Assembly (NCBI RefSeq): GCF_001443605.1
Contig: NZ_CP013118.1
Span: 3,033,501-3,097,500 of the forward strand
Length of the DNA stretch: 64,000 bases
Reading direction: 5' to 3'
Origin: Salinivirga cyanobacteriivorans
GTDB lineage: Bacteria > Bacteroidota > Bacteroidia > Bacteroidales > Salinivirgaceae
In this document: piece by piece, positions 10,501-28,761 of the stretch
Numbering within the stretch: the stretch's first letter is position 1
Layout: the number at the start of each line of letters is the position of its first letter
Notes under the pieces: model-generated
Seen by the model: the letters and a program-made list of their open reading frames with translations, nothing else
What the model was told of the DNA's origin: nothing
Databases searched by the model: none
Translations under genes and position numbers: made by a program

Positions 10501-10957
10501 CAAACTTTCCTGAGTTATAGTAATATTCTGCAGTTGTTATGTGTGGGGCTGCAAAATTTGACACAGTAATTGCTATACCGTCCTGGTAATCAGATCCACC
10601 CTGGTTCCACAGGGTGTCTACAATAAGCTCATAAGCATCAGAAGAAGATGCTGTAGTGCCGTTCTGGTCAAGTATAGCATTCATGTAAGCTCTGTCGATG
10701 CCTGCTATATTGAGGATTACAGAACTTGGTCCTGCATCACCTACCGGCGTTGCATTGGTTAATGTGTAGGAGGTGCTGTTGTACCCTACAATGGTTATTT
10801 TAGTTGGAAATACATTTTCGCTTCCCCCGCTATTAAAGCTCGAGCCGTTTATGGTAAGCTCGCCAGTCTCAGTGTTGTATGCTGCATCTGTTATATCTTG
10901 GGCCGAAAGGGTATTCCAAAAAAGTAAACCGCTGATTATGAGTAGTAATGTTTTCAT
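4541..10957 (-). CDS. Giant T9SS-secreted Ig/PKD-like repeat protein with Omp28-like region
   Basis: A very large secreted protein of about 2140 residues. The start at 10957 gives a clean signal peptide (MKTLLLIISGLLFWNTLSAQ); an ATG seven codons upstream at 10978 is the alternative. The first two thirds are Ig/PKD-like repeats with recurring YCxNG/GSP, GxFSGPGI and YTYTDxNGC motifs. PKD-like units with WEFGDGST, a MAM-like segment (GFAFDDIWLGE) and an Omp28-like region starting VIVESFTNTG follow, the last lacking the CxxC of thioredoxins. The end (VYPNPAS, then GLYLIRL, then RRFIKLE) is a type A T9SS sorting domain, so export and surface anchoring by T9SS are expected. It is the last gene of the eight-gene minus-strand operon and may be its surface effector or adhesin; the ligand is unknown. 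Confidence 0.85.
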   Translation of the reverse strand: MKTLLLIISGLLFWNTLSAQDITDAAYNTETGELTINGSSFNSGGSENVFPTKITIVGYNSTSYTLTNATPVGDAGPSSVILNIAGIDRAYMNAILDQNGTTASSSDAYELIVDTLWNQGGSDYQDGIAITVSNFAAPHITTAEYYYNSGKFVFTCTNLASDLTSNNDINVSHFSIKGFNNNTYTLGTSTSDLEVTNSTSFTIYLEGDDKSGVDDVLDLEGTASSDGKTYNINATENWNDASTATDLDNTTPVTVYNVPLLSDATASETYICPGENITLNANPSGATGAYSYAWSSIPSGTYINNESISVSPTETTAYYVTVTDGTKTHTSNVVVSVNPLPELSSNRTPDPICSGTEFNYTPSSNQNVISFAWNRDDITGINEGASGSTGSISETLTNSTNSPVAVKYYYTLTSNAGCVNTDSISFDVNPNGQVNDNTDQTVCNGNSTSIISFSTNNSGGTTTYEWSNNNNSIGLASSGVSDIESFTAINNGTDPVTATIEVTPTFENGGVGCPAPAPKSFNINLNPSAQVDDITDKIVCHQEIVPEIAFSTSNTGGTTTYSWTSSTDVGFGTGDNGNIAEFNANNTNNSPRTATVTVYPEYTSNGVTCNSTTNTFNVTVNPNGQVNALTDQTLCDGEATSYINFSTNNTGGSTSYEWTNNTPAISLSPSGTDDINSFIIDIGNSTMESAKIKVTPKFTYNSKECAGEPDSLYINVNPSPDVSFIMPQSTYSNSAPADTINGATPYGGIFSGPGIIASDSTFHPSSAGDGIHTISYTYTNANGCSNTATNTVNVVPPGGSILNLESYYCDYADGDTIIGRPDVGGITTCIECGFQSETWLAPLNDTTAIIYPSVAPEGSLAIYFTYEQGGALFDVIRTTEIHKVNGIASFNGLKDSYCIDADTTQLSGYPTGGNFYGNGITNVNIFDPGIAGTGNDTVMYVYTLASTTCKDTATQITTVNDLPNPHFDAAPQYCENGSPVTLSGTPAGGAFTGPNLSGTNPVAFTPTSSIVGSNTINYSYTDVNGCSNTYSHTFDVTSVANIGIESIEPDYCINGDTVELRGEVAGSFTGNGDFTGNGISDDVADDGLANFIPADAGIGGPYNITFTYTDLNGCTSNHTETLLVRALPTVSINNLENLYCIGSPAEVITGVPQSSSGSFAYAGDPNDLNNYGDGTANFIPNHINDTGYITYTYTDDYGCTNSHSQNVTVAPLPTVYFESDSVFCPNGSPVELIGEPAGGMFSGPNITGTDTATFTPSTNLIGNNIITYTYTDANSCTNAFARDIQINALPLLSIESIAPSYCVNDDSVLVRGEVNGSVSGEGYFFGNGIYDADSLDGAAYFYPDSAGIGGPYQITYTYTDTNNCVAYLDPPANVQVRSLPTVSLSGLSDIYCEGSPASLITGIPNDNPGEFAYQGPALNLIDNGNGTADIRPDSATQAGIVSYAYTDNFGCQNTAFDTIKVSALPEVGFTTSSYCVTDTIFFYDTTLSEEGILSWSWVFDDIASGSNTSTEQNPNHYYETGGNKEIMLEVTTIDGCNNSLTKSIDLNSGPSIDFTWDNECAGTSSTQFINLSDDTTQVLWEFGDGSTSTEVNPNHNYSEINTYDVTLHVNSAFGCQDSLIKTLNIRPYVSNYPYLQDFESQQGGWNIDVNMQTSSWEFGAPEGVIINSAFSGTNSWCTNLKGSYYNNELSSITSPCFDFSNMDKPMIKMNIWSATQENMDGAVMQAKIVGKTDWFNIGGLNEVINWYNGVGLPGNPGGGYNVGSYGWTGIDTAWKEVRHKLDELAGKENVRFRISFGSDNSGNTDGFAFDDIWLGERSRQVIVESFTNTGSAGSASVNPEFNTLMAEKATDAIDIQYHTSFPGFDELNDQNPSDPSARSTYYGITDVPWAVVNGNIMHTSTTQVINNHQTLDEQALLDPLFKIELETIKTENQIEVNADIKSMQELTNYELTAQVLIIENEITEVTGENGETEFLSVLRKMLPNAGGTNLPQNWDAGQTEQISFSWQLENVYNPEKINAVVFIQDETTQEIYQGATDDSASSQNGIAHNLVSMKEEHGFIVYPNPASAEIMILLKNRLQSTGTINIYNTTGKLIGQKSVDPGVYKFPMNVNHMKPGLYLIRLIENQKIIDTRRFIKLE

Positions 10958-11010
10958 AGTAGCTGTTTTTTGTATCATAATGTATTGCAGACATTATGAA
11001 TGGTTTTTAG

Positions 11011-12201
11011 TTAATGCTGCTCCAGGTCTTTATCGACCTTAATTAATGTAATCATACTGTTTTCAGCATGAGATGTAGCTCCCGTAAATATGAAGCCTCC
11101 ATCTGAAGTTTGCGTCAGAAAGTTAGCCCATTCTGAGCCTGTACTTCCGTAAGTTTTTTCCATTATCAGGTTTCCCTGATCGCTGAGTATTATGAGGTAT
11201 ACATCATTACTTCCATTTCCATAGGAGTCGGTTTTTCCTGCTATGGTATAGTTTCCATCGGCTTGCTGCACAACAGAGTTGCCGGTTTCTGTTTCGGTGC
11301 CACCAAAGGCTTTGCTCCATTCAATGTCGTGAATATTAGTACTGGTTTTCACTACAAAAATGTCAGATTCTCCTGCACCAAAGCTATTGGTTGTGCCTGA
11401 GAAAATATATCCGTTGGTGGTTTTGAAGACGGCTTGCCCCAGATCATTTAATTCTCCGCCAAATGTACTACGGTCAATGGGCACTCCATTTTCATTCACT
11501 TCAAGGGCCAGCATGTTGGCCGAGGCCTGTCCGGGCTCTATGAAACTCTCACTGGTTCCAAAGAGCACATATCCACCATTGTGGCTATGGCATATTGCGT
11601 AAGCTTCATCCAGTTCTGAACCACCATACGTTTTTGACCAGAGGCTGTCGCCTGTAGCTGATATTTTAAGGAGAAAGATGTCGTGCTGCCCGGCTGCATT
11701 TGTGTAGCCAGCTAGCATATAGCCTCCGTCGCTGGTTCCGATCACATCTTTAATTTGTTCATTATTACTGCTTCCGTAGTTTCTTTCCCAAAGAACATTT
11801 CCGGTGCCGGAAACTTTAGCGGCCAGCGCGTTGGTTTTATTACTTCCTATAAGGGTGGTGGTGCCGGCAACTAATACGGATTGATCATCTGACAGGCTAA
11901 ATGAAAAGGCATAGTCGTTTAAAGAATCACCTAATGTAACATGCCAGGCTATATCACCTGTACTGTTCGTTTTTAACAGATACATATCACTTAGTTCATT
12001 TTCATCGGCCATGGAACCGGCTAATAAATATCCTCCATCTTGTGTTTGTAGTACTTTGTGGCCTTCATCCAGGAATGAACCACCATAAAGCCGCATGAAT
12101 GAATCTTTATCGGCTGTATTGCCGGTATCATTTGTTTCACAACCCAAGACGATGAGTAAAATGAATAATAGCGTGAATATTTTTTGCATGCGGTTAATCA
12201 T
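11011..12201 (-). CDS. Lipoprotein with beta-propeller-like repeats
   Basis: A 396-residue predicted lipoprotein: a short hydrophobic leader ends in a lipobox (IVLGC, lipidated Cys at residue 21), followed by a Thr/Asp-rich spacer. The body consists of about six to seven repeats of roughly 50 residues with the core DGGYxLAG(T/S) and WxxxxGGS, typical of propeller-like repeat proteins of Bacteroidota. The ATG at 12201 overlaps the stop of the upstream gene (ATGA, 4 nt), indicating translational coupling; an ATG at 12189 would also leave the signal intact. The protein probably sits on the outer membrane beside the barrel protein encoded just upstream. Function unknown. Confidence 0.8.
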   Translation of the reverse strand: MINRMQKIFTLLFILLIVLGCETNDTGNTADKDSFMRLYGGSFLDEGHKVLQTQDGGYLLAGSMADENELSDMYLLKTNSTGDIAWHVTLGDSLNDYAFSFSLSDDQSVLVAGTTTLIGSNKTNALAAKVSGTGNVLWERNYGSSNNEQIKDVIGTSDGGYMLAGYTNAAGQHDIFLLKISATGDSLWSKTYGGSELDEAYAICHSHNGGYVLFGTSESFIEPGQASANMLALEVNENGVPIDRSTFGGELNDLGQAVFKTTNGYIFSGTTNSFGAGESDIFVVKTSTNIHDIEWSKAFGGTETETGNSVVQQADGNYTIAGKTDSYGNGSNDVYLIILSDQGNLIMEKTYGSTGSEWANFLTQTSDGGFIFTGATSHAENSMITLIKVDKDLEQH

Positions 12202-13262
12202 TTTTTTCTTTTTGGTTTATAAAGCATATACATATAGCCTACACTAATGGCATAGTTGTTCAGCCTACGGTCGTCATCAATGTAGTAGTAAATGTAATTC
12301 AGTTCTGCATTGCTGTATCTTTTATCTTCATTGACCTGATTCATTAAACCGTGGTAGTAGCGGCCCGAAAGGAAGAAATATCCCCGGGGTATTTTGTATT
12401 TCAGACCAATTTCGGCAAATAATGAAATATTGAATTTTTGCCGCATGTCGGTTAATTCGATATCAGTTCCTGAAACAGGTTGCTGTGTGTTTTGCGCGTA
12501 GGTTCTTTCCGGTGTTGCTGTTGCATTAATCAGGTACTCTGCAGAGAGTCCCAAACTGATAAATGGGTGCCATTGTTTTATTGGATAAACGAATGATCCT
12601 GAAATGGGAAGAAAAATTTGATCCTGGTTTTCAGTAATGGTTAATTTACTGAAGTCAAGTGATTCCTCTGTATACCGGAAGGTGTGCCTTAAAAACCCGG
12701 GTTCTGCATTTAGTTCAATGTTTTTATATACAGGTTTGCTAAATTTTAAACCAAATTGGAAGCCGGGCGCATGATGTTCGTATGTGGTTTTGCTTGTGCT
12801 GCTGATTGTATAAGGTTTTATAACCGCGATATTGGAGAAATTGATACCTCCATAAACGCCAAGCGATAAATAGGGGAGGGTTTCGAATTTTTTATAAAGG
12901 CTTAAAAATTCAGCTGGTTCGTTGTTTTTATTGGGCACATATTCCGGATTAAACCTAAGGAACTCGAGCATTTTTTGAGATGCCTGGTTCAGGTCCTGGT
13001 TAAACAAATGCGCATTGATAACGAGTTTGTAGGCCCGTATTTTTTCTTCTCTTGTGAAGCCTCTGTCAATACAACCAGCCAGCATTTCAGGTATATTTTC
13101 TATTCTGCCTTCGTCATATGCTTGTTCTGCTGCTTTAAGCTTTTGGGTGCACTGCTGCTGCCCAAACACATCAACTGAAAGGGTTATAAAGATGAGCATC
13201 AACATTACAACAGGCATGTAAAACCTTGATATTGTACTGGTATTTTTATTTTGTGCTGCCAT
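12198..13262 (-). CDS. Outer-membrane beta-barrel protein with N-terminal helical segment
   Basis: A 354-residue exported protein: an N-terminal hydrophobic segment ending near VDVFGQQ acts as signal peptide. Residues about 37-110 are helical and TPR-like, with a Cys pair (QQCTQ and AGCIDRG). From about residue 130 alternating aromatic strands form a PorT/OmpX-like barrel (LSLGVYGGINFSNI at its start, an aromatic-rich strand near the end). This layout is common next to Bacteroidota nSTAND/WD40 genes. It lies 6 nt downstream of the nSTAND gene and overlaps the lipoprotein gene, so it belongs to the operon and probably forms the envelope part of the system. Specific role not known. Confidence 0.78.
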   Translation of the reverse strand: MAAQNKNTSTISRFYMPVVMLMLIFITLSVDVFGQQQCTQKLKAAEQAYDEGRIENIPEMLAGCIDRGFTREEKIRAYKLVINAHLFNQDLNQASQKMLEFLRFNPEYVPNKNNEPAEFLSLYKKFETLPYLSLGVYGGINFSNIAVIKPYTISSTSKTTYEHHAPGFQFGLKFSKPVYKNIELNAEPGFLRHTFRYTEESLDFSKLTITENQDQIFLPISGSFVYPIKQWHPFISLGLSAEYLINATATPERTYAQNTQQPVSGTDIELTDMRQKFNISLFAEIGLKYKIPRGYFFLSGRYYHGLMNQVNEDKRYSNAELNYIYYYIDDDRRLNNYAISVGYMYMLYKPKRKK

Positions 13263-13268
13263 GCTGAT

Positions 13269-16200
13269 TTATTGTTTATAGTGTTCAATAGTATTGATAT
13301 ACGGGATATCTTTTCCAACATAGGTTTCCCACTCTTTTTTTGTCATTTTACGCTGTATGCGTGGCAATAGTTTGTTGGCCATTATTTTACAATCCAGGTC
13401 CCAGCGTTTAATATTTGAATCGACATAGGATGTAAACAGTTCATTGCTTTTGTCATTAAAGGTAAGCGCCATACCCCAGCTGCTATAATCTCTTATTACC
13501 AGAGGTGTTTTATCGAAATTTTGAGTTTGGTAAATACGGGCTGTCCCGTCAAAAGCCACAGAAGCCAGATATTTGTCGTTGTGACTAAAAGTTATATCGT
13601 TTATTCTGGCATTATGAGCATTGAGCTCTTTAATGAGCGCTGAATTATGTAATTTGAATATGGCAATTGACCCATTTTTTGCACCAAGAGCGAGCAGGCT
13701 GTCGTTGTTACTTATTGCTCCGGCATAAAAAGTGTTTAGACCGGTATAAAAGATGTCTTTTTGGTAATTTGTCAAATCCATTAAAACTGCAGCAGGCTGA
13801 TTGGTAAGGTATAACATACGTTTCATTTGGTTTGCCACTTTCAGGTCCCAGATTTGGGCATTCTCACGCACTTTTTTTTGTTCGCCGTTGTATATGTCAT
13901 TGATAATTATTGTACTGTCGGTGCTTGATGATATTAGTGTATGGTTGTCTGCAAAAGCCAATGCGGTAATGATATTTTTATGACGGTATAAAATGGAATC
14001 TTCCTGGTTGCTCAGGTTGATAAGTTTAACTTCAAAATTATCGTCGGCAATGGCCATGAATTGCCCATTTGGGCTAAAAGCCACATCTCTTATAATTTCA
14101 CCATTAGCATACATCGTTTCGTTACCTTTGAGACTGTCTTGAAGGTTCCATTGAAGTATTTCACCATCGCTGCCAGCACTAAAAAGTGTGTGTTGGTCTT
14201 CTGGCTGGAATTTTAGAGCTCTTACAGCATCTTTATGGCCTCTGAAGGTATTATATTCGGGGTTATTTTTAGCTTTTATGGCATAATACAAACCGTCATA
14301 AATATCCGGGTTAAACTGGTCGCCGCCATATTCTCTGTTGAATTGGTAGGCTTGATATGCCAATAGTGCTTTGAGGTCTTTTTTCTCTTCCATTTGTGCT
14401 GATTTAACAGCCATCGAGCGAGCAATAGAGAGCATACGAAGTTCTTTGGTTCGCTCTTGTGCCTGTTCGGCTTTGTTTTTTTCTACGAGTGCTTCTTTCG
14501 ACTTTTTGTCTGCAATCTGTCGTTGTTTTTGCGCTTCCTGAGTTTGTTTAGTAGCAATTTCTTTTTGCCTGGTTGCTTCTTTAAGGTTTGCTTCTGCTAT
14601 CTTGCGTTGTATCTCTGCAATTTTAGTTTGCTCGCGTGCTTCTTTTTCGCTTTTTAAAGCAATTTCGCGTTGTTCCTCAGCTTTCTGTTCATTTTTTAAG
14701 GCAAGTTCTTTTTGTGTTTCAGCTTCTTTGCGCTGTTTTTCAGCCTCCTCTTTTTGCTGCTCGGCAATAATGCGCTGTTTGTTCGATTCGGCCTGCATGG
14801 TGATAGCATACACCATAAAACCCAGTGAAATAATAGCCGCCGAACCAAGCACTATGGCGAATATGCGTGATCGTCTAAGGGCTTTCTTCTGCAGGCGGAT
14901 TTTGTTTTCTTCTTCGGCAAGGTGCGCTTTTTCACTGGTTTCGAGGTAAACCATAGCCCGCTCGAATGCCGGCGAAAAGCGCTTGGCCCACGTTAGGGTG
15001 GGTTGTTTCTCTTTACGCCAATTAAGGGCCAGCTGTAAATCAGGCGGACGCCACAGTCCTATTTTTCCCTCCTGGTACATGGCAGCTGCTTCCGAAAGCC
15101 TCATGTACATTTGAATGGCCATGGCTTCTTCATCCACCCAGACTTTTAGTTTATCCCAAATGCGCATTAAGCTTTCATGAGAAATATCGATGATCGAGGC
15201 TGAATTAAGCGATTTATCTGCCGAGGTCAGGAATGAGCGTCCTGAAGCTCTGAAATGTTCAATAATTTTTATCACTGTTGCTTCATCGCTATTGGCAATG
15301 GAGGCTATTTCTTCTACACTGGAGGGGTGTCGTATTCCCCTGTTGTCATTTCCTCTTTCAGTTAAGGTTTTGAACATGTTTTCACAAATCACCTTTTCAT
15401 CTGGCGACAGCTCATTAAAGGCCTCGTTGGCATGATTGGAAAGAGCTTTTTCCATACGGCCAATAGAATCGTAATGCACTACATCCAGTTCCTCTTTTCC
15501 TCCGGAATGTTTCATCCAGAAATCCCAGGTACGCATTAGCGCATGCTGAAGAATTGGGAGTTGGTCGGGGTTGTCGCCAAGGTCGTTCAGCAGCTCATTC
15601 ACGAGTTTTTCTGAAATTTTTCCGCCACCTACAGCTATCGGCCCTTTAATAGCCAGCCTGAAATTATCCCTGTTCATTTGCGGGATAAGGTAATGGCTGG
15701 TATTAATCATGTCTGTAAGTTCCTGGTATTGTGCGCATTCACCAATAAAATCTGAGCGCATCGTCATTACTACATAAATGGGTACATCTGATTGTTTTAT
15801 GGCGTTCATTATTAGCCTAACATATGCAAATGACTCATTTACGGCATTTTCATTTCCGAATTTTTTTCTAAATCTGAAAAGCTCTTCAAACTGATCAGCC
15901 AGTATAAGGTAGTTCTGATCATCCTGGCTCCGGGTTTGTTTTATTGCTTCAACCAACCCGTTTGAGCTGCTTTCCAATATGGCTCTTATGAGCTTGGGAT
16001 TGTAGCCGTTGTCTGAATTATCTTCGTCAGACCGGGCGGCAATTTCTTTGGCCAAATTGCCAATAGGGTCGTTGCCCGGGCGTGATAAAATAATTTTCCA
16101 TTTTGAGCCTGCTTCGGTGATGAAGCCTCCGTATAAAATAGGTACAACCCCGCAATACATAAGCGAAGATTTCCCACTTCCGGAAGATCCCACAACCGCT

Positions 16201-16343
16201 ACAAATCTGTTTTGCGATAAATTGCTCAATACTTCCTCACTTTGACCTTCGCGTCCAAAGAAAAGATGACTCTCAGACGTGGTAAATGGCCTTAGCCCCG
16301 GAAAGGGATTGAACATTTTGTTGTTGTTGGAATTAGAACTCAT
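13269..16343 (-). CDS. nSTAND1-type NTPase with transmembrane helix, coiled coil and WD40 propeller
   Basis: A 1024-residue signalling NTPase. Domains in order: entry motif NPFPGLRPF; Walker A GSSGSGKSS near residue 55; Walker B-like LILADQFEELF near 165; a winged-helix region to about 400; one membrane helix (IFAIVLGSAAIISLGF) near 495-515; a long Lys/Glu/Gln-rich coiled coil of about 120 residues; then WD40 repeats (FRGHKDAVRALKF, HNARINDITFSHNDKYLASV) to the end. STAND proteins are ATP-driven switches that oligomerise on a signal; the propeller is the usual sensor or scaffold. The start is 3 nt from the stop of the TIR-like gene, so the two are surely co-expressed and likely partners. Confidence 0.88.
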   Translation of the reverse strand: MSSNSNNNKMFNPFPGLRPFTTSESHLFFGREGQSEEVLSNLSQNRFVAVVGSSGSGKSSLMYCGVVPILYGGFITEAGSKWKIILSRPGNDPIGNLAKEIAARSDEDNSDNGYNPKLIRAILESSSNGLVEAIKQTRSQDDQNYLILADQFEELFRFRKKFGNENAVNESFAYVRLIMNAIKQSDVPIYVVMTMRSDFIGECAQYQELTDMINTSHYLIPQMNRDNFRLAIKGPIAVGGGKISEKLVNELLNDLGDNPDQLPILQHALMRTWDFWMKHSGGKEELDVVHYDSIGRMEKALSNHANEAFNELSPDEKVICENMFKTLTERGNDNRGIRHPSSVEEIASIANSDEATVIKIIEHFRASGRSFLTSADKSLNSASIIDISHESLMRIWDKLKVWVDEEAMAIQMYMRLSEAAAMYQEGKIGLWRPPDLQLALNWRKEKQPTLTWAKRFSPAFERAMVYLETSEKAHLAEEENKIRLQKKALRRSRIFAIVLGSAAIISLGFMVYAITMQAESNKQRIIAEQQKEEAEKQRKEAETQKELALKNEQKAEEQREIALKSEKEAREQTKIAEIQRKIAEANLKEATRQKEIATKQTQEAQKQRQIADKKSKEALVEKNKAEQAQERTKELRMLSIARSMAVKSAQMEEKKDLKALLAYQAYQFNREYGGDQFNPDIYDGLYYAIKAKNNPEYNTFRGHKDAVRALKFQPEDQHTLFSAGSDGEILQWNLQDSLKGNETMYANGEIIRDVAFSPNGQFMAIADDNFEVKLINLSNQEDSILYRHKNIITALAFADNHTLISSSTDSTIIINDIYNGEQKKVRENAQIWDLKVANQMKRMLYLTNQPAAVLMDLTNYQKDIFYTGLNTFYAGAISNNDSLLALGAKNGSIAIFKLHNSALIKELNAHNARINDITFSHNDKYLASVAFDGTARIYQTQNFDKTPLVIRDYSSWGMALTFNDKSNELFTSYVDSNIKRWDLDCKIMANKLLPRIQRKMTKKEWETYVGKDIPYINTIEHYKQ

Positions 16344-16346
16344 ATG

Positions 16347-17696
16347 CTATAATTCAGTGTTGCTAATCAAATCATTGGCTAAAGCATCAAGTGCTTGTTT
16401 GTTATTTTCTACAATCTTAAATTCTTTTTTAAGTGAGGTATCCGGTTTGTCGCCTGGTTGCACAAGTAAAATTCTGTTTGCAATTGGTTTATTCCTACCC
16501 AGGCCCGTGGCTTTTATTATATCTTTTTTCTTGCTTTCGAGCCAGTCAGGATGGTCTTTGTTGAATAGCAATATTACACTATCGCAAATAATCAGACTTT
16601 GCCAGTGATGAAACAGAAGCTCCTTTTTGTCCTCTGCCATTAGCGGATCAATGAGGTTCAGATCTTTTAGGTTAAATTGTTGTTTTAAAGTTGCTGTATC
16701 TTTTTCCTGACCTTGATGGTAAATGAAGTAAACTTTATGTTGTTTGCTTTCATCTGTGTGGATTGATTTCGCTTTCTTTTTTACTCTGTGTAATAAGATA
16801 TCTTTAAAAGTTTCTATAGGCATTTGTACTATTTCTGCCCCTTGCAAAGCCGCATTGTCTCTTTTAAGTTTTTCTATCAGTAAGCGTTGGTTTTCATCCT
16901 TAATGAGCAAGTCTTCAGGAATCCAGATTAGGCGGTTTGTTTTTTTATTTTTTTGACAGAAATTGGAAGCTATGTTGTTTTGTAGGGTTATGATGTCGTG
17001 GCCATTAGCTTTTTGGGCTTTTTCGCCACCAACAATATGAACAATAATGTCGGCCTGGGTACATGCTTCCTCAAATTGCGCTTCGATATTGTTTTTCAAG
17101 CCGTCTGGAAAAGGTGAGATTACCCTGAAACCATTATGTTGTAATTCTCGAATTATAGAATCCCTGGCGTCTTGCAGATCTGGACCGGTTTCGGCTATCA
17201 GTATCTTTTTGTCTATGGCTGGTTTTGTATAGCAATCGGGACAAATGGTCATTGAGAAATCTACCAGCTTTAACCAGAAAGATTTTTCTGAAACGTAATC
17301 ATCTTGATTATTAAGATCAACCTTGCCAAATGGGTTTTCCAGGTCAAAGTTGTAAACACTACTGTTTAGATCCTTATTTTCTAATATTTCAGGTTTGTCG
17401 GTAAAATTTAGTTGATAAACGCTTGTTTCCGGGTCATTGGCTTTTTTGTAAAACAGGTCAAGTTCTTCACGCACGCCTTTGTCCTCGAAATAGTCGGATG
17501 AAACGACCATTAAAATTATGTTTGCCTTATTGATAAACGGAGTTTTGTTTTGATCAAAACTGGTAGCAATTTCAACCGGTTTACCCATATAGTTTTCTAT
17601 CAGTAAACGGATTGTATTGGAGAACTTTCTAATCCAGTTTTCAGAAACCAATTCACTGTGGGTGGCGCAACTCACAAATATTTTTTGTGATTCCAT
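16347..17696 (-). CDS. Triple TIR-like domain protein
   Basis: A 449-residue soluble protein with three Rossmann-like modules. Residues 1-130 are TIR-like: KIFVSCATHSE strand, an IILMVVSSDYF strand and then REELDLF, whose E78 falls where TIR NADases carry the catalytic Glu. Residues about 160-310 form a second module (ILIAETGPDLQDARDSI, ADIIVHIVGG, RLIWIPEDL), the type often labelled DUF4062 or TIR-like. Residues 325-430 form a third (KVYFIYHQGQEKD, CDSVILLFN, IKATGLGRNKPIANRI). The same three-module arrangement is familiar beside nSTAND NTPases in predicted conflict or signalling loci. The genes on either side are 3 and 11 nt away. NAD cleavage is possible but not shown. Confidence 0.75.
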   Translation of the reverse strand: MESQKIFVSCATHSELVSENWIRKFSNTIRLLIENYMGKPVEIATSFDQNKTPFINKANIILMVVSSDYFEDKGVREELDLFYKKANDPETSVYQLNFTDKPEILENKDLNSSVYNFDLENPFGKVDLNNQDDYVSEKSFWLKLVDFSMTICPDCYTKPAIDKKILIAETGPDLQDARDSIIRELQHNGFRVISPFPDGLKNNIEAQFEEACTQADIIVHIVGGEKAQKANGHDIITLQNNIASNFCQKNKKTNRLIWIPEDLLIKDENQRLLIEKLKRDNAALQGAEIVQMPIETFKDILLHRVKKKAKSIHTDESKQHKVYFIYHQGQEKDTATLKQQFNLKDLNLIDPLMAEDKKELLFHHWQSLIICDSVILLFNKDHPDWLESKKKDIIKATGLGRNKPIANRILLVQPGDKPDTSLKKEFKIVENNKQALDALANDLISNTEL

Positions 17697-17707
17697 AATT
17701 TGTTGTT

Positions 17708-19747
17708 TTACAATTTTAGTCCAACTACCAGAATATCATCTACCTGCTCTTCGTCTTTCATCCAGTTTTTGATTGTGATATCTATCTCTTTACGCTGTTG
17801 CTCCAGGGGTAGCCCGTGCACTTTCAGCAACAACTTTCTGAAGTTTTTAGCAAGGAATTTTCGACCTTCCGGACCACCAAATTGATCCTGATATCCATCA
17901 GAAAACATGTATATGATGTCTCCGTCCTTAACATCGATTTCATGGTTGGTAAACGGGTGTTCTTTTCTGTAAATGCCAATTGGCATACGGTCTGCTTTTA
18001 TTAGTTCTATTTCGTTATCTCTGATCAGTACAATTGAATTGTTGGCTCCTGCACAAAGCAGTTTTTTCTTTTCCGGGGCATAAATGCAAAGACTCAGATC
18101 GATACCATCCTTTTGCTCTTTTTCTTTTCCGGTTTGTCTGAGCGATTTTTTGATATATTTTCTCAGGCGATCGAGTATTTTGGCGGCATCATCACTGCTG
18201 TCGGCTGTAACTATTTCGTTAAGTGATGATATGCCAAGCAGGCTCATAAATGCTCCTGGTACGCCATGACCTGTACAGTCGGCTGCAACAAATATGCGCT
18301 TGTCCTCTATGCGTCTTGTCCAGTAAAAATCGCCACTTACAATATCTTTGGGTTTAAAGAGTACAAATGAGTCGGGAAAACTATCCAAAAGTACTTTTTC
18401 CGGTGGGAGCAGTGCTTTTTGAATTTGCTCGGCATATTTAATACTATCTGTAATATGTAAGTTTTGTTCTTCAATTTTCTTATAAGCAACCTCAATGCGT
18501 TGATTTTTATCTGCAAGAGAGTCGCGCTGTGCTGTAATTTCTTCTTTTTGCTGTTCAATTTCTTTTGTCCGGTCAGCCACTTTCTGTTCAAGTACATTGT
18601 AATACTCTTCAATACGCTCAATCATACGGTTAAAGTGTTTTGAAAGCGTAGCTATTTCATTGCTGCCTTCAATAAGGGCCCTGTCGGTGAGGTCGCCTTT
18701 GGCAATGCGATTAACATTTGCTACAAGGCGTTTAATTGGACTGGTTATTACCTTGGTTTTGTAGTAAATGATGATGATAACAAGCAATATGGTGACCAAT
18801 GAGATGCTTATGGATTTAATAAGCTCATTCGATAATATTTGTTTGTCGCGACTCCGATCCGATACAATCCTTATAACTGATTTTTTATACAGGTCGGTGT
18901 TTTCCCTTTCCATGTATATGTATTCGTAATACAGGGCCGCAGTGTCGGTTGGCACTTTAATGGTGTTGGTATCTTTTGATGCGAATGTTTTACTCAGCAT
19001 CATGGAATCCCGCGGAGTGATTGTATTATTGGTTAATGAAAAGGGTGCTTCTTCACTTATAAAGAGATCAACCGAAATGATATTCGCTTCTTTTTCGGCA
19101 ATTGTCTCCAAAATACTTTGAATACGTTTGATTAGTTTGTCAGCTTTTGTTGAATAGGATCCTAATTCTATAATATATTTATTATCGAGGGTTGGATGGT
19201 AGGTAAATTTCTTTAATCGTTTTGTGGAGGCCTCAATTGCAAATCGTTCACTTACAAATTTTCCCTCTTCAAATATTTTTAAAAGGTACTGTTTATGCTC
19301 TCTGCCAAAATCGAAGAAGTTGAGGTTGAGGTCTTTATCGAAAGTTGTATTAACTACGATACCCTGCTTGTTTATGACATAAATGTCGTAATAGTTTGGG
19401 TCCATTCCAAGTTCCTCGCGAATGGTTTTTAAGTTTGCCTCTTCTATATTTTTAGTGTTGGCAAAGTATTCTTCCACCAGTTTATAACTGTATTTTTTCA
19501 GATTTTGATTCTTTTGTTCCTCAATGGCTTCCAAACCCACATCCTGAAGTTCCATGATGTGCTTTATCTCATTGGAAATGATGTAGTTTTTTGTTTGGTT
19601 TGCATCGTGAAGAATTGTTTGAGTCTGGTAGTAGTTTAGGCTGGCTAGCGCAACCAAAGCAACAACAACCGGAAATATTACATTCAATATCAGCTGCTTA
19701 AATATTGTCGTGTAACGTCTTCTTTTTTTGTTAGTTTTATTGTCCAT
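17708..19747 (-). CDS. Membrane sensor SpoIIE/PP2C-type serine phosphatase
   Basis: A 679-residue membrane protein: TM helix near 20-42, an extracytoplasmic sensor region of about 270 residues, a second TM helix (LVTILLVIIIIYY) near 322-335, a HAMP linker (TSPIKRLV to NEIATLSKHFNRM), a coiled coil, and a C-terminal SpoIIE phosphatase domain from about 470. The PP2C metal-ligand motifs GDFYW, AADCTGHGVPGAFM and MFSDGYQDQFGG are intact, so the enzyme should be active. Such RsbU-like proteins dephosphorylate anti-anti-sigma-like or other Ser/Thr-phosphorylated partners. No such partner is encoded beside it, so its substrate may be one of the neighbouring STAND/TIR proteins (inference). Confidence 0.88.
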   Translation of the reverse strand: MDNKTNKKRRRYTTIFKQLILNVIFPVVVALVALASLNYYQTQTILHDANQTKNYIISNEIKHIMELQDVGLEAIEEQKNQNLKKYSYKLVEEYFANTKNIEEANLKTIREELGMDPNYYDIYVINKQGIVVNTTFDKDLNLNFFDFGREHKQYLLKIFEEGKFVSERFAIEASTKRLKKFTYHPTLDNKYIIELGSYSTKADKLIKRIQSILETIAEKEANIISVDLFISEEAPFSLTNNTITPRDSMMLSKTFASKDTNTIKVPTDTAALYYEYIYMERENTDLYKKSVIRIVSDRSRDKQILSNELIKSISISLVTILLVIIIIYYKTKVITSPIKRLVANVNRIAKGDLTDRALIEGSNEIATLSKHFNRMIERIEEYYNVLEQKVADRTKEIEQQKEEITAQRDSLADKNQRIEVAYKKIEEQNLHITDSIKYAEQIQKALLPPEKVLLDSFPDSFVLFKPKDIVSGDFYWTRRIEDKRIFVAADCTGHGVPGAFMSLLGISSLNEIVTADSSDDAAKILDRLRKYIKKSLRQTGKEKEQKDGIDLSLCIYAPEKKKLLCAGANNSIVLIRDNEIELIKADRMPIGIYRKEHPFTNHEIDVKDGDIIYMFSDGYQDQFGGPEGRKFLAKNFRKLLLKVHGLPLEQQRKEIDITIKNWMKDEEQVDDILVVGLKL

Positions 19748-19753
19748 GGTTTT

Positions 19754-22700
19754 TTAAATAATTCTTGTCATTAATGATGATTGTGACTCCTGACTTGTCA
19801 TATATCTGTTTGCAAGTATGAAAGGGACATAAAGCACTATTGCATTGACTTTTGCCCTAATGTTCAGTTCGTTTTTATCGCCAGAGCTTTCGGAGGAAAT
19901 GACATCACCCTGGTTATATAGTTTTTCTTTATTATTTAGTGATGTTTCAATGGTTCCGCTAATGATGATAAAAAAATCGAGTCCGGGATCTTCAATTTTT
20001 AATTCATCTTCTACCTGCAGTGAGTACACCTTAGAATGTTCGACCAGGTTGCTTAATTCATCGCTGCTTAGGCTTTTGAATATTTCAAAGTCTTTTGAGT
20101 GGTTAATTATTTCATAAATGGTTTGATTAGTTTCTTTCATTACCGTTTTTTCAAGCTCAAGCCTGTCCTGGCGGTCGAGCCTCTGCAGAAGTTCATGATA
20201 CTTATTTTTGTCAGAATTTGCCAGCGTTTTAATGGCCAGTTGGTTTAATAGGATATCGTTATTAAAGACCTGGGCTATTGTGGTTGCACTAGCTGCAATT
20301 TCTTTTCCCCATAGTGAATTCAGTGCACATGCTTTTGTATATCTGGAAATAAAATTAATATCCCGGTTTATGATATCGAGCACCAGACTTTCTTCTGTTA
20401 TTCTGTTCAAAGGAAATTGATCCTGGAACCTTCTTACTTTCTCGTTCTCCGATATATCTTCGAAAAGAGTGAATAATAGTGGTTTTATATCTTCATCAAC
20501 AAATAAATCAAGCAGTTCAATTGCATAACTGATACTTTCTGAGGTAGCCTGATCGAGGTTCTGTTTTACATGGGCCAGCGATTGTTTATTATAAATTATT
20601 TCGAGTATGGTGTGGATTTCTGTTTCCACAGCTTTTTTTTCAGCTTCAAAGGCATTAATCAATGAGGTGCCATGTTTAGATTCAGAAAGGTTTATGCTGA
20701 TATTCATGTTCCATGCCATTACCCTGACTTGTTCCTTTAGCAGATCAATCAATTTTTGTTTTTCAGTTTCGTTTCTTGGTTTGTAGTTAATTTTAATAAG
20801 GGCATCCAGGGTTTGTTTAATAATTTCCTGGTTGGTGAGCTCTAATTTATTAAGTAGGTAATTGGTTGCCTTTTTACCAATGAACTCAAGTAATTCAATA
20901 ATTTGAAGTTGTATGTATTGGCCGAGGCCGGATTTATAGAAAAATTGTTCAAGTTCGTCAAGGGCATCTTTTCCATATTTTTTGAGGGCTTCAAAACAAT
21001 GAAGATTGTATTGATCTATTGCCAGCAAGTCAATAATTATGGCCCGGCTATTGGGTTCTCTTAGTTTCGCGGCTGCTGTTATGGCTGCAATTCTTACTTT
21101 AGGAGAATAGTCGCGCAATAAAATAATAATGTATCTTGCCAGAGTTGGTGTTGCTGAGTGTGCTATAATGCGGGCAGCTTTTACCCTTTCTTCAGGGTAG
21201 GCTGATTCGACAAGTGCTTTGATTTCAGCGTCGTCTTTGTATCGTTCTAGCATTTCTTCAAGGTTACTTGCAATATCGGTTGCCTTTTGGACTAAATTTT
21301 GGTCTTTTGAATTGCTGGCAAATTTTTTAAGGTCAGGAATAAGCTCAAATACAGTGTTATCCTCAATATCGGACAAGATCCATTTTTGCAGATCTATATC
21401 ATCTGACAATAAGCATTTTTTGTAATAACCAGTTAGTTCAGTCGGCGCGGATTGTTTAATTAATTGTAATTTTTTTCTTTTGCCTTCTTTTGTTTTACCC
21501 TCATAATTCAAGAGGTCCTGGTTTATTTTTTCAGCTCTTTTCTGGACTATGGTTTCGGTTTCGGTCTCAAGGGTTGCTCCCAATGAGGCTCTGTACTGTT
21601 TGTAAACAAAATAGGCAATGGTAGCCCAGGCTCCAACAATAGCAATTAGCAGGTAGGCATGATGTATTACGTTAAAGACACCAAGTGCTCCCATCACAAA
21701 CAGGAGCAGTCCTGCCAGTACAGCAGCACTTTCATTCACCATGCCGTCAATGGCTACCTGTACTTTGTATCTTATTGATTTGTCAAGTGATTGATATAGA
21801 ATTTTTTGTGAAGGAGTTTCAATTGCATTTTTTAATGAGACTGAGAATAGCCTTCCCAGTGCCACAAAGAGGAAAAATAAAACGAAACTTGTTGATTCGG
21901 GGGAAATGCCAAAAAATTCTCCGGCAGCAACACCAAGTAATACAAAAAGCCCCAACAAAAGTGGTGGCAGCAACAGGTTTACCTTTAAACCATAATTCTT
22001 TGTGATTTTATCATACGCAAAAGTTTTAATCAGGATTGTGAAAATCATGAGCGTACCTGTAAACATGCCAAGGAAAACGGTGTATTCCCTGTCACCCGGG
22101 TATAACATTTTGGTTGTAGGTAGAAAAATGTAGAACATGAAAAACGCAGCCAGCACCGAGAAAGCCACATAAAATGTCATGGATCTGATATATCGATTAC
22201 GGAACAGGTCTGCCACCATCAGTTTTTTTTCAGCTTTTAAAATATTCTGTTGTTGATCGAGGTTAAACTTTCGTACAATGACCATTTGGATAACAAATGC
22301 CAGAAATACACTGATAGCACTGATGAAAAGTAAATCTTTGCTTGTGTTGAGTATGTTCAGCAGTACAGGCACCAGGAAACTAATCAGAATCATACCAAAG
22401 ATCTGACCTGCGTCTATTAACCCAAAAAGCCTTTTTCCCTGTCTTAACGTAAACAGACGCCCTGCCATTCCCCAAAAACCAATTACTCCGAGCAGGTTTA
22501 AGGGGCCCATTAAAATGAAAGCAGCGAAAATTAATACTTCGCTTTCGCTGAGGTAGAAGGAGCTACGAAGCAAAAAAGTAATGATTGAAATTGTCAACAG
22601 GTTAAGAATAATAAGCTTCGAGAACTTCCATACAGATTGCAGGCGATAGTATACTGCAGAGAGTGCAAAACCAAGAATCCCAGATACAAGAAATGCCCTG

Positions 22701-22867
22701 GAGATCATCGACTCGCCAAAGGTGTTGATGAATAGCGAGGTGGTGGATATATCGAATAGTGCCAGAAAAACACCTAAAAAGACAGTCTGCCCAAGGAGTA
22801 AAAAGACGGCTGTTCTTTCTTCAGGCCTAATGTTGAGTATTCTTGATATGTTGGTTATAACTGACAT
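19754..22867 (-). CDS. NTT/MFS-like carrier fused to HEAT repeats and a cyclic-nucleotide-binding domain
   Basis: A 1037-residue protein in three parts. Residues 1-430 hold about 12 membrane helices resembling the ATP/ADP carrier (NTT) or MFS fold; the opening RPEERTAVFLLLGQTVFLG is typical of NTT-like proteins in Bacteroidota. Residues 430-880 are HEAT-like helical repeats (ERVKAARIIAHS, SPKVRIAAITAAAKLREP). Residues about 895-1037 resemble a cNMP-binding domain (FKSLSSDELSNLVEHSKV, LDFFIIISGTIET, YNQGDVISSES). Transport has not been shown for such fusions; the carrier may act as a ligand-gated sensor. It abuts the queuosine transporter gene (1-nt overlap) and the SpoIIE phosphatase gene (6 nt). 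Confidence 0.8.
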   Translation of the reverse strand: MSVITNISRILNIRPEERTAVFLLLGQTVFLGVFLALFDISTTSLFINTFGESMISRAFLVSGILGFALSAVYYRLQSVWKFSKLIILNLLTISIITFLLRSSFYLSESEVLIFAAFILMGPLNLLGVIGFWGMAGRLFTLRQGKRLFGLIDAGQIFGMILISFLVPVLLNILNTSKDLLFISAISVFLAFVIQMVIVRKFNLDQQQNILKAEKKLMVADLFRNRYIRSMTFYVAFSVLAAFFMFYIFLPTTKMLYPGDREYTVFLGMFTGTLMIFTILIKTFAYDKITKNYGLKVNLLLPPLLLGLFVLLGVAAGEFFGISPESTSFVLFFLFVALGRLFSVSLKNAIETPSQKILYQSLDKSIRYKVQVAIDGMVNESAAVLAGLLLFVMGALGVFNVIHHAYLLIAIVGAWATIAYFVYKQYRASLGATLETETETIVQKRAEKINQDLLNYEGKTKEGKRKKLQLIKQSAPTELTGYYKKCLLSDDIDLQKWILSDIEDNTVFELIPDLKKFASNSKDQNLVQKATDIASNLEEMLERYKDDAEIKALVESAYPEERVKAARIIAHSATPTLARYIIILLRDYSPKVRIAAITAAAKLREPNSRAIIIDLLAIDQYNLHCFEALKKYGKDALDELEQFFYKSGLGQYIQLQIIELLEFIGKKATNYLLNKLELTNQEIIKQTLDALIKINYKPRNETEKQKLIDLLKEQVRVMAWNMNISINLSESKHGTSLINAFEAEKKAVETEIHTILEIIYNKQSLAHVKQNLDQATSESISYAIELLDLFVDEDIKPLLFTLFEDISENEKVRRFQDQFPLNRITEESLVLDIINRDINFISRYTKACALNSLWGKEIAASATTIAQVFNNDILLNQLAIKTLANSDKNKYHELLQRLDRQDRLELEKTVMKETNQTIYEIINHSKDFEIFKSLSSDELSNLVEHSKVYSLQVEDELKIEDPGLDFFIIISGTIETSLNNKEKLYNQGDVISSESSGDKNELNIRAKVNAIVLYVPFILANRYMTSQESQSSLMTRII

Positions 22868-23640
22868 TATTCTTTTTGTGTATGGTATTTTTTATTTGGA
22901 TCGATATCGAGGTATTTTGATAAAAATTTTACTCCGATGTAAAACGGAATTGTATCGAGCAGGGCTGACAATAATTTGAATACATAACCCGATACAATAA
23001 GCACAAGTAAAGTATGGTAAATGCTGTCTTCTTTTATTTGGATAGCCTTTGCATAATAGTATGTAATTAATGTTACGGAAATACTATCCACAAGTTGGCT
23101 TATAAGTGTAGAGCCGTTATTTCTTAGCCACAGGTGTTTGCCTTTGGTTAGCTTCTTAAGGAAGTGAAAGATGTGTACATCAACAAATTGGGCTGTTAAA
23201 TAAGCAATCATTGAGGCTAATGTAGCGCCAAAAGTGAGTCTTCTGATTTCATAAAATGCATAGCTGGGGTCATCCATTGAAGGCACCACTGCACCCGGCT
23301 CCATTTCAGGAACTATGGGCAATGCTCCGCCAATCCACATAATAAAAAGAACCCAAATATTAATTAACAATCCGGTGAGCACAACAGCTCTTGCACGTTC
23401 TTTTCCATAGAGCTCACTTATAAAGTCAGTACAAAGGAAAGTAATCGGGTAGGGGAGTATACCAACAAAAAGGTACACCGGTACTTTGAAATCGAATAAT
23501 GTAAAAGATAGGTCAAGTTGCCTGGAAATGCCGAGTATATTTAACATAGCAAGTGTTCCAAGAAATAATCCTGCTAACACGACAAAAACAACTTCACGAC
23601 GACGGGTATATTTATCCGTTAATTCGTAAGATTCAAACAT
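22867..23640 (-). CDS. yhhQ: Queuosine precursor transporter (YhhQ/VUT family)
   Basis: A 257-residue inner-membrane protein with six to seven hydrophobic helices and the family features VPVYLFVGILPYPITFLCTDFISELYG, AxLTAQFVDVHIFHFLK, LWLRNNGSTLISQLVDS and a terminal KLLSALLDTIPFY. Members take up queuosine precursors such as preQ0/preQ1 for tRNA modification. It is the first gene of the minus-strand operon; its stop overlaps the start of the NTT-like gene by one base (TAATG). Its link to the signalling genes is unclear and may be only positional. No preQ1-riboswitch motif was found in the leader. Confidence 0.88.
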   Translation of the reverse strand: MFESYELTDKYTRRREVVFVVLAGLFLGTLAMLNILGISRQLDLSFTLFDFKVPVYLFVGILPYPITFLCTDFISELYGKERARAVVLTGLLINIWVLFIMWIGGALPIVPEMEPGAVVPSMDDPSYAFYEIRRLTFGATLASMIAYLTAQFVDVHIFHFLKKLTKGKHLWLRNNGSTLISQLVDSISVTLITYYYAKAIQIKEDSIYHTLLVLIVSGYVFKLLSALLDTIPFYIGVKFLSKYLDIDPNKKYHTQKE

Positions 23641-27791: not shown

Positions 27792-28761
27792 TAGAGGTCA
27801 GTAGATAAATTCATATAATATATTATCTTTGATACCAATAAAATCAATGATTTAATGGAATTATTCAAAGGACAAAACCTCATAGAGTTTGCTACACGCT
27901 TTAATTCGGATGAAAAGTGTATTGAATATTTAGCTCATATTAAATGGCAAGATGGATTTAGATGTGTTAAATGTGGTCATACCGGAAGTCAAGTAAGAAA
28001 GAATCATTCAAGAACGTGTAATAAGTGTAATCATACTGAATCAGCAACAGCAAATACACTATTCCACAAAGTTAAATTTGGTGTTCAAAAGGCTTTTTTT
28101 ATTTGCTTTGAAATGGCAACTACAACCAAAAGTTTATCTGCAAGTTATGTTGGAGAACGCTTTGGGGTTACTGAGAAAACAGCTCGACTGTTTATGCATA
28201 AAGTACGGGAAGCGATGAAGTCAAGCGGTAATAACCCAATGAGTGGAAATGTACATATTGATGAGTTTGTAATTGGTGGAAAGGAAGAGGGAAAAGTTGG
28301 ACGTAGTTACCATATTAAGAAAAAGAAGGTTATATGTGCTGTAGAGCTTACTGATGATGGTAAGGTTAAACGCATGTACTCGATGAAAATAGACAACTAC
28401 TCATCGAAAGAGCTAGAAAAAATGTTCGATGCGCATATTTCTCAACAGGCAAAGGTAACAACAGATCAATGGAAGGGCTACCGTCCACTCATGTCAAGCT
28501 ATGATATAAGACAAATCGAGAGTGACAGAGGTTCCAACTTCAAGGCTTTGCACACAATGATTCATCAAGTTAAATCTTGGATAAGAACCACTTACTCATG
28601 GGTTAGCACTCACAATATCAACAGGTATCTTGACGAGTTTTGCTACCGACTTAATCGTTCTCAAATGAAAAAGAATATTTTCAATAATTTGGTACGCAGG
28701 ATGGTTATTGCTGATAAAGTAAAGCAAGCAGATTTAATATGCAGTTAAATACTGACCTCTA
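27792..28761 (+). mobile_element. IS1595-family insertion sequence, 970 bp, complete
   Basis: The element is bounded by 12-bp perfect terminal inverted repeats TAGAGGTCAGTA (27792-27803, and 28750-28761 inverted) with weaker similarity just inside. Perfect 8-bp direct repeats TAGGTTTT flank it, the duplication length known for the IS1595 family. One intact transposase gene fills it. It sits between groEL and the metalloprotease gene; the identical duplication suggests a fairly recent insertion. Confidence 0.92.
27855..28748 (+). CDS. IS1595-family transposase
   Basis: A 297-residue transposase of the ISXO2/IS1595 type. It has an N-terminal zinc ribbon (CVKCGHTG, CNKCNHTES), a helix-turn-helix-like region (SASYVGERFGVTEKTARLFMHKVREAM) and the catalytic domain. 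VHIDEFVIGGKEEGKVGR carries the first catalytic Asp, TTDQWKGY the second, and NRYLDEFCYRLNR is the conserved C-terminal motif. It catalyses cut-and-paste movement of the surrounding element. It appears full length with no frameshift, so it may be active. Confidence 0.93.
   Translation: MELFKGQNLIEFATRFNSDEKCIEYLAHIKWQDGFRCVKCGHTGSQVRKNHSRTCNKCNHTESATANTLFHKVKFGVQKAFFICFEMATTTKSLSASYVGERFGVTEKTARLFMHKVREAMKSSGNNPMSGNVHIDEFVIGGKEEGKVGRSYHIKKKKVICAVELTDDGKVKRMYSMKIDNYSSKELEKMFDAHISQQAKVTTDQWKGYRPLMSSYDIRQIESDRGSNFKALHTMIHQVKSWIRTTYSWVSTHNINRYLDEFCYRLNRSQMKKNIFNNLVRRMVIADKVKQADLICS

What the first reader, a model, noticed from the sequence alone, without database searches (positions are those of the whole stretch)
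16347..17696. Triple TIR-like protein with a candidate catalytic Glu
Three Rossmann-like modules are joined in one 449-residue protein; only the first keeps a Glu (E78, REELDLF) at the position of TIR NADases. The other two could bind nucleotides or mediate assembly with the nSTAND partner encoded 3 nt downstream.
Basis: partly seen in the sequence, partly recalled or inferred. Interest (0 to 1): 0.55.

Follow-up and report, generated by a model that had tools for sequence, protein, structure and literature searches.

The report
Triple TIR-fold partner of membrane STAND
This bacterial protein is built from three copies of an enzyme fold that in other proteins destroys NAD; in two of the three the key catalytic residue has been swapped for another and kept that way, so it looks more like an adaptor for a membrane signalling switch than like a killer enzyme.

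Summary
AlphaFold2 gives three TIR-like modules (mean pLDDT 81). Their best solved matches are TIR domains (module 1), DNPH1/MilB N-glycosidases (module 2) and a nucleoside deoxyribosyltransferase (module 3). Only module 1 keeps a Glu at the catalytic position, E78. The NADase reading is weak: E78 is present in 21 of 49 relatives, the BB loop is about 10 residues shorter than in relatives with a fuller TIR, and the TIR_2 score is below Pfam's cut-off. E78 is, however, kept in the window's own four-member clade. Module 2 is DUF4062-like, with the catalytic Glu replaced by Gln in 46 of 49 relatives and in 11 of 11 more distant ones. Module 3 has Lys there in 44 of 49. DUF4062 itself was reported in 2026 as a TIR-like NADase family. 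The gene lies immediately upstream of a transmembrane nSTAND1-WD40 gene in 45 of 47 loci, usually beside an NTT-HEAT-cNBD transporter, often a SpoIIE phosphatase, and an outer-membrane barrel. Two-module versions without the TIR also sit beside nSTAND genes. I read it as the cytosolic adaptor of an envelope-sensing STAND operon: a new variant of a known kind.

The parts
16347..17696 (-). gene for the 449-aa triple TIR-fold protein (P0001)
17226..17696 (-). module 1, residues 1-157: degenerate TIR domain (TIR_2 E=7.6e-5, below cut-off; short BB loop)
17463..17465 (-). codon of E78, position of the TIR catalytic Glu
16773..17219 (-). module 2, residues 160-308: DUF4062-like / N-glycosidase fold, the best conserved module
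16980..16982 (-). codon of Q239, which replaces the catalytic Glu of canonical DUF4062
16350..16748 (-). module 3, residues 317-449: NDT/TIR-like fold with the WLxSKxxDIxKxxGxGR motif
16530..16532 (-). codon of K389, at the position equivalent to the catalytic Glu
13269..16343 (-). nSTAND1 (residues 13-426), one transmembrane helix, coiled coil and WD40 propeller; 1024 aa, 3 nt downstream
14808..14864 (-). transmembrane helix of the nSTAND protein (residues 494-512), basic residues before it
17708..19747 (-). membrane-bound HAMP-SpoIIE phosphatase (SiaA-like), 679 aa
19754..22867 (-). NTT-like nucleotide translocator fold + HEAT repeats + C-terminal cNBD-like domain, 1037 aa
12198..13262 (-). 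outer-membrane beta-barrel protein (OMP_b-brl_2), 354 aa
11011..12201 (-). lipoprotein with delta-60 (DUF5122) propeller-type repeats, 396 aa
4541..10978 (-). 2145-aa secreted protein with PKD, Omp28 and type IX sorting tail; a relative follows in part of the loci

Best explanation
The protein is the cytosolic adaptor of a membrane-bound STAND switch. The nSTAND1 NTPase next to it is anchored by one transmembrane helix, so its WD40 propeller should lie in the periplasm, where it could read the operon's outer-membrane barrel, lipoprotein and secreted partners. On a signal, the NTPase would oligomerise under the membrane and cluster or re-arrange the triple-module protein, mainly through modules 2 and 3. 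These two have the fold of NAD/nucleotide N-glycosidases, but their catalytic Glu has been exchanged for conserved Gln (239) and Lys (389), so they should bind a nucleotide-type ligand or protein surfaces rather than hydrolyse. Module 1 is a decaying TIR domain that keeps E78 in this clade but has lost part of the BB loop. Output probably runs to the neighbouring SpoIIE phosphatase and/or the NTT-HEAT-cNBD translocator. Shown by computation: the folds, the residue swaps, the gene order, the TM helix. Inferred: complex formation, ligand binding, direction of signalling, output.
For: P0001 homologue directly upstream of the nSTAND1-WD40 gene in 45 of 47 non-redundant loci, -29 to +13 nt apart; NTT-like gene upstream in 38, SpoIIE immediately upstream in 21, barrel after the nSTAND in 42. 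TM peak in all 55 listed nSTAND homologues that are long enough, with basic residues before it in the printed sequences (nine loci counted twice). Three TIR-topology modules, matching TIR, DNPH1/MilB and NDT structures at Z 11.6-12.9. Q239 in 46 of 49 core and 11 of 11 more distant relatives; five of five canonical DUF4062 domains used have Glu there. K389 in 44 of 49. Q239 and K389 rank 3rd of 149 and 8th of 133 columns of their modules, E78 43rd of 157. Thirteen proteins of about 300 aa consist of modules 2+3 only; 9 of 13 lie directly beside an nSTAND gene and none has Glu at that position. NTT1 translocators are the best structural match of the neighbour. No PADLOC match for P0001, SpoIIE, the NTT-like protein, the barrel or nine flanking proteins; the nSTAND has only weak Walker-region matches.
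Against: No interaction, ligand or activity was tested. E78 is kept in all four members of the window clade, so activity of module 1 cannot be dismissed. Two of 49 (L052, L053) keep Glu in module 2. One homologue (L081) stands among unrelated genes with no nSTAND neighbour. Distribution is patchy: 27 of 295 genomes of the order have a match above 200 bits, and 2 of 6 in the family, as accessory or conflict systems often show. A related TIR + nSTAND1-WD40 pair lies on a Caballeronia plasmid. The short, fast-evolving module 1 makes the E78 column uncertain.
Confidence: 0.58

Rival explanations
1. Module 1 is an active TIR NADase; the nSTAND protein clusters P0001 on infection or envelope damage, E78 hydrolyses NAD+, and the cell stops growing (abortive-infection type).
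For: E78 sits on alpha-C at the catalytic position and is invariant in the window's clade, as are S9 and L79. More distant relatives with a fuller TIR (EWCxRE in L094, L095, L098, L104) pair with nSTAND or other NTPase regions. The domain order recalls TEP1/APAF-1-type proteins discussed in PMC13174449.
Against: E78 in only 21 of 49 homologues, at least 7 changes on the nSTAND tree; BB loop 16 against 26-27 residues; TIR_2 below cut-off; two-module relatives lack the TIR altogether; no defence gene found nearby.
Confidence: 0.17
2. The whole operon is an anti-phage or inter-bacterial conflict system that uses inactive enzyme domains as decoys or dominant-negative effectors, as described for other STAND/MoxR systems.
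For: Patchy distribution; P0001 evolves fastest of the operon's proteins (38% against 70% for nSTAND and 74% for SpoIIE in the sister genome); inactive effector domains are a stated theme of such systems (PMC7159879, passages); plasmid-borne distant relative.
Against: No PADLOC match at E<=0.001 among nine flanking proteins and the barrel, only weak Walker-region matches of the nSTAND; no plasmid or phage match for P0001 itself; flanked in the window by ETF, acyl-CoA dehydrogenase, glutamine synthetase, Cpn60 and PEP carboxylase genes, although an IS1595-type transposase lies at 27855-28748.
Confidence: 0.2
3. The triple-module protein is a slowly decaying relic without a function of its own.
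For: Module 1 mean pairwise identity is only 0.22 and its catalytic residue is often lost.
Against: The frame is open in nearly all loci; modules 2 and 3 hold 17 and 12 columns at 80% or more, W385 in 49 of 49; gene order is kept.
Confidence: 0.03

Closest known systems
DUF4062 TIR-like NADases: Swarozyc (K. pneumoniae) and human TEP1 (PMC13174449; parts 1-2 of 6 and passages read)
   Same: Module 2 aligns along nearly its whole length with canonical DUF4062 (hhalign probability 95.8). TEP1 and NWD1 join DUF4062 to a STAND (NACHT) NTPase, several with WD40 repeats; here the same kinds of part are split over two genes.
   Different: The catalytic Glu is Gln; two further TIR-fold modules; the STAND partner is nSTAND1 with a transmembrane helix; no defence gene seen nearby; no auxiliary domain reported by Pfam.
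Canonical TIR domains (SARM1, plant TIR, bacterial TIR_2)
   Same: Fold and topology of module 1; Glu at the start of alpha-C.
   Different: BB loop trimmed, the WC pair lost, below the Pfam cut-off, Glu not kept family-wide.
Nucleoside 2-deoxyribosyltransferase / DNPH1 / MilB N-glycosidase fold
   Same: Best structural matches of modules 2 and 3 (Z 12.0-12.9).
   Different: No Glu at the alpha-C position in either module; no sequence identity above 15% in the listed rows.
nSTAND1-centred conflict systems (PMC8195603, PMC10907252; passages read)
   Same: nSTAND1 NTPase with an associated effector-type protein in the same operon.
   Different: Transmembrane nSTAND with a WD40 domain beyond the membrane; operon with an NTT-HEAT-cNBD translocator, SpoIIE phosphatase, barrel and lipoprotein.
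NTT-HEAT-cNBD fusion proteins (PMC5381601; passages read)
   Same: The upstream neighbour P0004 has this make-up; its best structural matches are AtNTT1 and Chlamydia NTT1.
   Different: Here it is joined in an operon to a STAND/TIR-like pair; the passages read do not describe such a link.

Membership tests
TIR-domain NADase | TIR fold, five parallel strands | tested here: met
   Module 1 in the AF2 model; IL-1RAcPb TIR Z 12.5, SARM1 Z 11.6
TIR-domain NADase | Pfam TIR/TIR_2 match above the curated cut-off | tested here: not met
   23.6 bits against 28 for P0001; relatives L094, L098 and L132 score 61.9, 55.5 and 43.7
TIR-domain NADase | catalytic Glu on alpha-C in this protein | tested here: met
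   E78
TIR-domain NADase | catalytic Glu conserved in the family | tested here: not met
   21 of 49 core homologues
TIR-domain NADase | BB loop of usual length | tested here: not met
   16 residues between beta-B and beta-C against 26-27 in 11 relatives
TIR-domain NADase | NAD+ hydrolysis | not testable with these tools
   needs an assay
DUF4062 NADase (Swarozyc/TEP1) | DUF4062 domain above the Pfam cut-off | tested here: not met
   P0001 16.1 bits against 24.7; E<=0.01 in 18 of 28 homologues, best 3.9e-8
DUF4062 NADase (Swarozyc/TEP1) | catalytic Glu | tested here: not met
   Q239; Gln in 46 of 49, Glu in five of five canonical domains used
DUF4062 NADase (Swarozyc/TEP1) | adjacent STAND NTPase with WD40 (TEP1-type arrangement) | tested here: met
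   in trans, separate gene 3 nt downstream
DUF4062 NADase (Swarozyc/TEP1) | residence in a defence island | tested here: not met
   no PADLOC match at E<=0.001 among nine neighbours and P0006; weak mad3/mad8 Walker-region matches of the nSTAND only. The paper says only about a fifth of DUF4062 genes lie in islands, so this is not strictly defining
nSTAND1 conflict system | nSTAND1 NTPase | tested here: met
   PF20703 E=2e-96
nSTAND1 conflict system | effector-associated domain linking NTPase and effector | tested here: inconclusive
   none among the Pfam families shown for P0001 and P0002 (best 25 of 45 shown for P0002)
nSTAND1 conflict system | role in immunity or conflict | not testable with these tools
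   needs phage or competition tests

The most novel reading that the evidence does not exclude
A whole family of STAND partners has turned an NAD(P)-cleaving enzyme fold into a sensor: modules 2 and 3 hold an NAD- or nucleotide-type ligand through the fixed Gln/Lys without cutting it and set the threshold of a transmembrane STAND switch. That switch reports outer-envelope events through a periplasmic WD40 propeller and acts on a nucleotide translocator (NTT-HEAT-cNBD) and a SpoIIE phosphatase. This would be an APAF-1/TEP1-like machine used for envelope and nucleotide homeostasis rather than for killing.
Probability: 0.2. Interest if true: 0.78.

Novelty: new variant of a known kind. Interest (0 to 1): 0.5.

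Why it matters
TIR and DUF4062 domains are now read as NAD-destroying effectors. Here is a large family in which the catalytic Glu of a DUF4062-like domain is replaced by Gln almost without exception, next to a STAND NTPase anchored in the membrane. It gives a clean test of whether STAND proteins can use dead NADase folds as sensors or scaffolds, and it links the TEP1/APAF-1-like arrangement to an envelope-facing operon with a nucleotide translocator.

Tried and rejected
Single-protein scan of genome contigs with P0001 found nothing. The full alignment A1 was too diverged for pattern search. Sequence search of P0001 in the PDB found nothing; the profile found weak matches, plant TIRs for module 1 and designed proteins for module 3. 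Internal profile comparison of the three modules gave no firm homology between them (best M2-M3, probability 65; M1-M3 13; M1-M2 0.5), so 'triple' is a statement about fold, not about recent duplication. The viral structure library gave nothing useful. Flank comparison: apart from one 227-aa ORF shared with the sister genome, the window's flanking genes were not found beside other loci, so I do not claim a fixed chromosomal site or strict vertical descent. Literature: searches listed no paper that I recognised as treating this operon; this covers only the held open-access library, and only the papers cited were opened. One search (Salinivirga) gave nothing on it either.

Rows left out of counts: the 49-row core is 46 distinct proteins of A1 and A4 plus L091-L093. 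L050, L059 and L060 (partial or divergent) were not put in A1, L089 (split frame) not in A4, and L096, L100, L103, L108, L109 not in the more distant set of 11. L104 was cut to its first 330 residues there. In one search, 5 of 10 DUF4062 loci were used; the other 5 gave no ORF matching my start motif. In one search, L059, L060 and L089 were not counted among the 47; in two of the 47 no nSTAND was seen (L055 at a contig end, L081 a true exception).

Full report
What is there. The gene runs on the minus strand, 17696 to 16347, ATG start, 449 aa. It lies in a run of minus-strand genes: a queuosine-precursor-transporter relative (22867-23640; TIGR00697), an NTT-like protein with HEAT repeats (19754-22867), a HAMP-SpoIIE phosphatase (17708-19747; best NCBIfam match SiaA, E=3e-67 but below its cut-off), the triple-module protein, the nSTAND1-WD40 protein (13269-16343), an outer-membrane barrel (12198-13262), a lipoprotein with delta-60 repeats (11011-12201) and a 2145-aa secreted protein with a type IX sorting tail (4541-10978). 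The window lies in a 4.81-Mb single-contig genome. The one same-genus relative with the gene sits on a contig of the same length and gene content as a named Salinivirgaceae MAG. That the window itself is Salinivirga is my inference.

Fold. AlphaFold2 on 28 sequences gives mean pLDDT 81.4, pTM 0.55 and three modules with five strands each; the modest pTM means the arrangement of the modules is not reliable. VIA-align matched residues 2-156 to TIR domains (IL-1RAcPb Z 12.5, RPP1 11.9, SARM1 11.6), 161-309 to DNPH1 and MilB N-glycosidases (12.4, 12.0) and 320-447 to a nucleoside 2-deoxyribosyltransferase (12.9). Module 3 also matched response regulators and GTPases at Z 10-11, so its placement is less specific. 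Pfam places TIR_2 on residues 46-99 (E=7.6e-5) and DUF4062 on 164-224 (E=0.013), both below cut-off; across the 28 rows of A4, 16 hit TIR_2 and 18 hit DUF4062 at E<=0.01.

The catalytic position. E78, Q239 and K389 lie near the start of helix alpha-C in modules 1, 2 and 3. Over 49 core homologues column 78 is Glu in 21, column 239 is Gln in 46 (two Glu, one gap) and column 389 is Lys in 44. In 11 more distant relatives column 78 is Glu in 11 and column 239 Gln in 11; column 389 is not Lys in any. Five canonical DUF4062 domains from other genomes all have Glu in column 239. PMC13174449 (parts 1-2 and passages read) reports that DUF4062 is a TIR-like NADase family needing that conserved Glu (E97 in KpSwz, E1008 in TEP1); I mapped the position by alignment and by the helix, not by those residue numbers. 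Gln is therefore fixed where the enzyme appears to need Glu. By rank of conservation, Q239 is 3rd of 149 columns, K389 8th of 133, E78 43rd of 157.

Is module 1 an enzyme? For: E78, L79 and S9 are among 15 of 157 positions invariant in the window's four-member clade, and the column aligns with the Glu of plant TIRs. Against: on a tree of the nSTAND partner (47 rows) the presence of Glu changes at least 7 times; the BB loop is 16 residues against 26-27; the WC pair seen in L094, L095, L098 and L104 is gone; and 13 relatives of about 300 aa have no TIR at all, 9 of them directly beside an nSTAND gene. I put an active NADase at about one in six.

Relatives and gene order. In the order, 41 of 295 genomes match the profile at E<=1e-5, 27 of them above 200 bits; in the phylum sample 14 of 395; in the family, 2 of 6 with P0001. 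Named carriers include Reichenbachiella, Imperialibacter, Marinoscillum, Fulvivirga and Bacteroidales MAGs. In 47 non-redundant loci the nSTAND1-WD40 gene follows directly in 45, at -29 to +13 nt; the NTT-like gene lies upstream in 38, SpoIIE immediately upstream in 21, the barrel follows the nSTAND in 42 and the lipoprotein after it in 38 (some loci end at contig ends). L081 is a true exception without an nSTAND neighbour. P0001 has no match in 72,556 plasmid or 50,697 phage records, but a more distant TIR-type relative (L094) led to a Caballeronia plasmid where a TIR protein sits 22 nt before an nSTAND1-WD40 gene; it too has Glu in column 78 and Gln in column 239.

The partner. The nSTAND protein has a hydrophobic helix at residues 494-512 with basic residues before it, between NTPase and coiled coil/WD40; every one of the 55 listed homologues long enough to contain it has one. 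By the positive-inside rule (general knowledge) the NTPase is cytosolic and the WD40 propeller periplasmic. The upstream neighbour P0004 is predicted as a bundle of long transmembrane-type helices, a helical HEAT solenoid and a C-terminal beta domain; its best solved matches are plant and chlamydial ATP/ADP translocators, and a homologue has a Pfam cNMP-binding domain. This is the NTT-HEAT-cNBD make-up described in PMC5381601 (passages).

Rates. To the sister genome, P0001 is 38% identical, nSTAND 70%, SpoIIE 74%, NTT-like 50%, barrel 48%, lipoprotein 41%. P0001 thus evolves like the envelope-exposed members, not like its NTPase partner. That fits either a fast-changing adaptor or an arms race, and I cannot tell which.

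Reading. The evidence favours a cytosolic adaptor whose modules 2 and 3 are ligand-holding or scaffold versions of an N-glycosidase fold, driven by a membrane STAND switch that looks outward. Complex formation, ligand and output are inferred. Defence remains possible: the patchy distribution and the inactive-effector theme of PMC7159879 (passages) fit it, while the housekeeping flanks in the window and the lack of firm PADLOC hits speak against a defence island.

Noticed in passing
window 19754-22867 (-): NTT-HEAT-cNBD-type protein in a free-living Bacteroidota operon; best structural matches are AtNTT1 and Chlamydia NTT1 translocators.
   Followed up: partly
L094, L095, L098, L104: Relatives with a fuller TIR (EWCxRE) as module 1 and Gln in module 2; in L104 the protein is fused to a P-loop NTPase-like region.
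   Followed up: partly
L060, L110-L121: Proteins of about 300 aa made of modules 2+3 only, without the TIR, mostly beside nSTAND genes; none keeps the catalytic Glu.
   Followed up: yes
L052 and L053: The only two core homologues with Glu at the module-2 catalytic position; possibly active and useful as a contrast.
   Followed up: no
L081:4038-5486: Full triple-module homologue among housekeeping genes with no nSTAND neighbour.
   Followed up: partly
L033:16104-18098 and L074:10133-12136: A second SpoIIE phosphatase follows the lipoprotein gene in these loci.
   Followed up: no
window 27855-28748 (+): IS1595-type transposase ORF about 4 kb beyond the operon's upstream end.
   Followed up: no
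L132:5956-11170 (Caballeronia plasmid pSBC2-4): TIR protein with Gln in its second module next to an nSTAND1-WD40 gene in a betaproteobacterium, on a mobilizable plasmid.
   Followed up: partly
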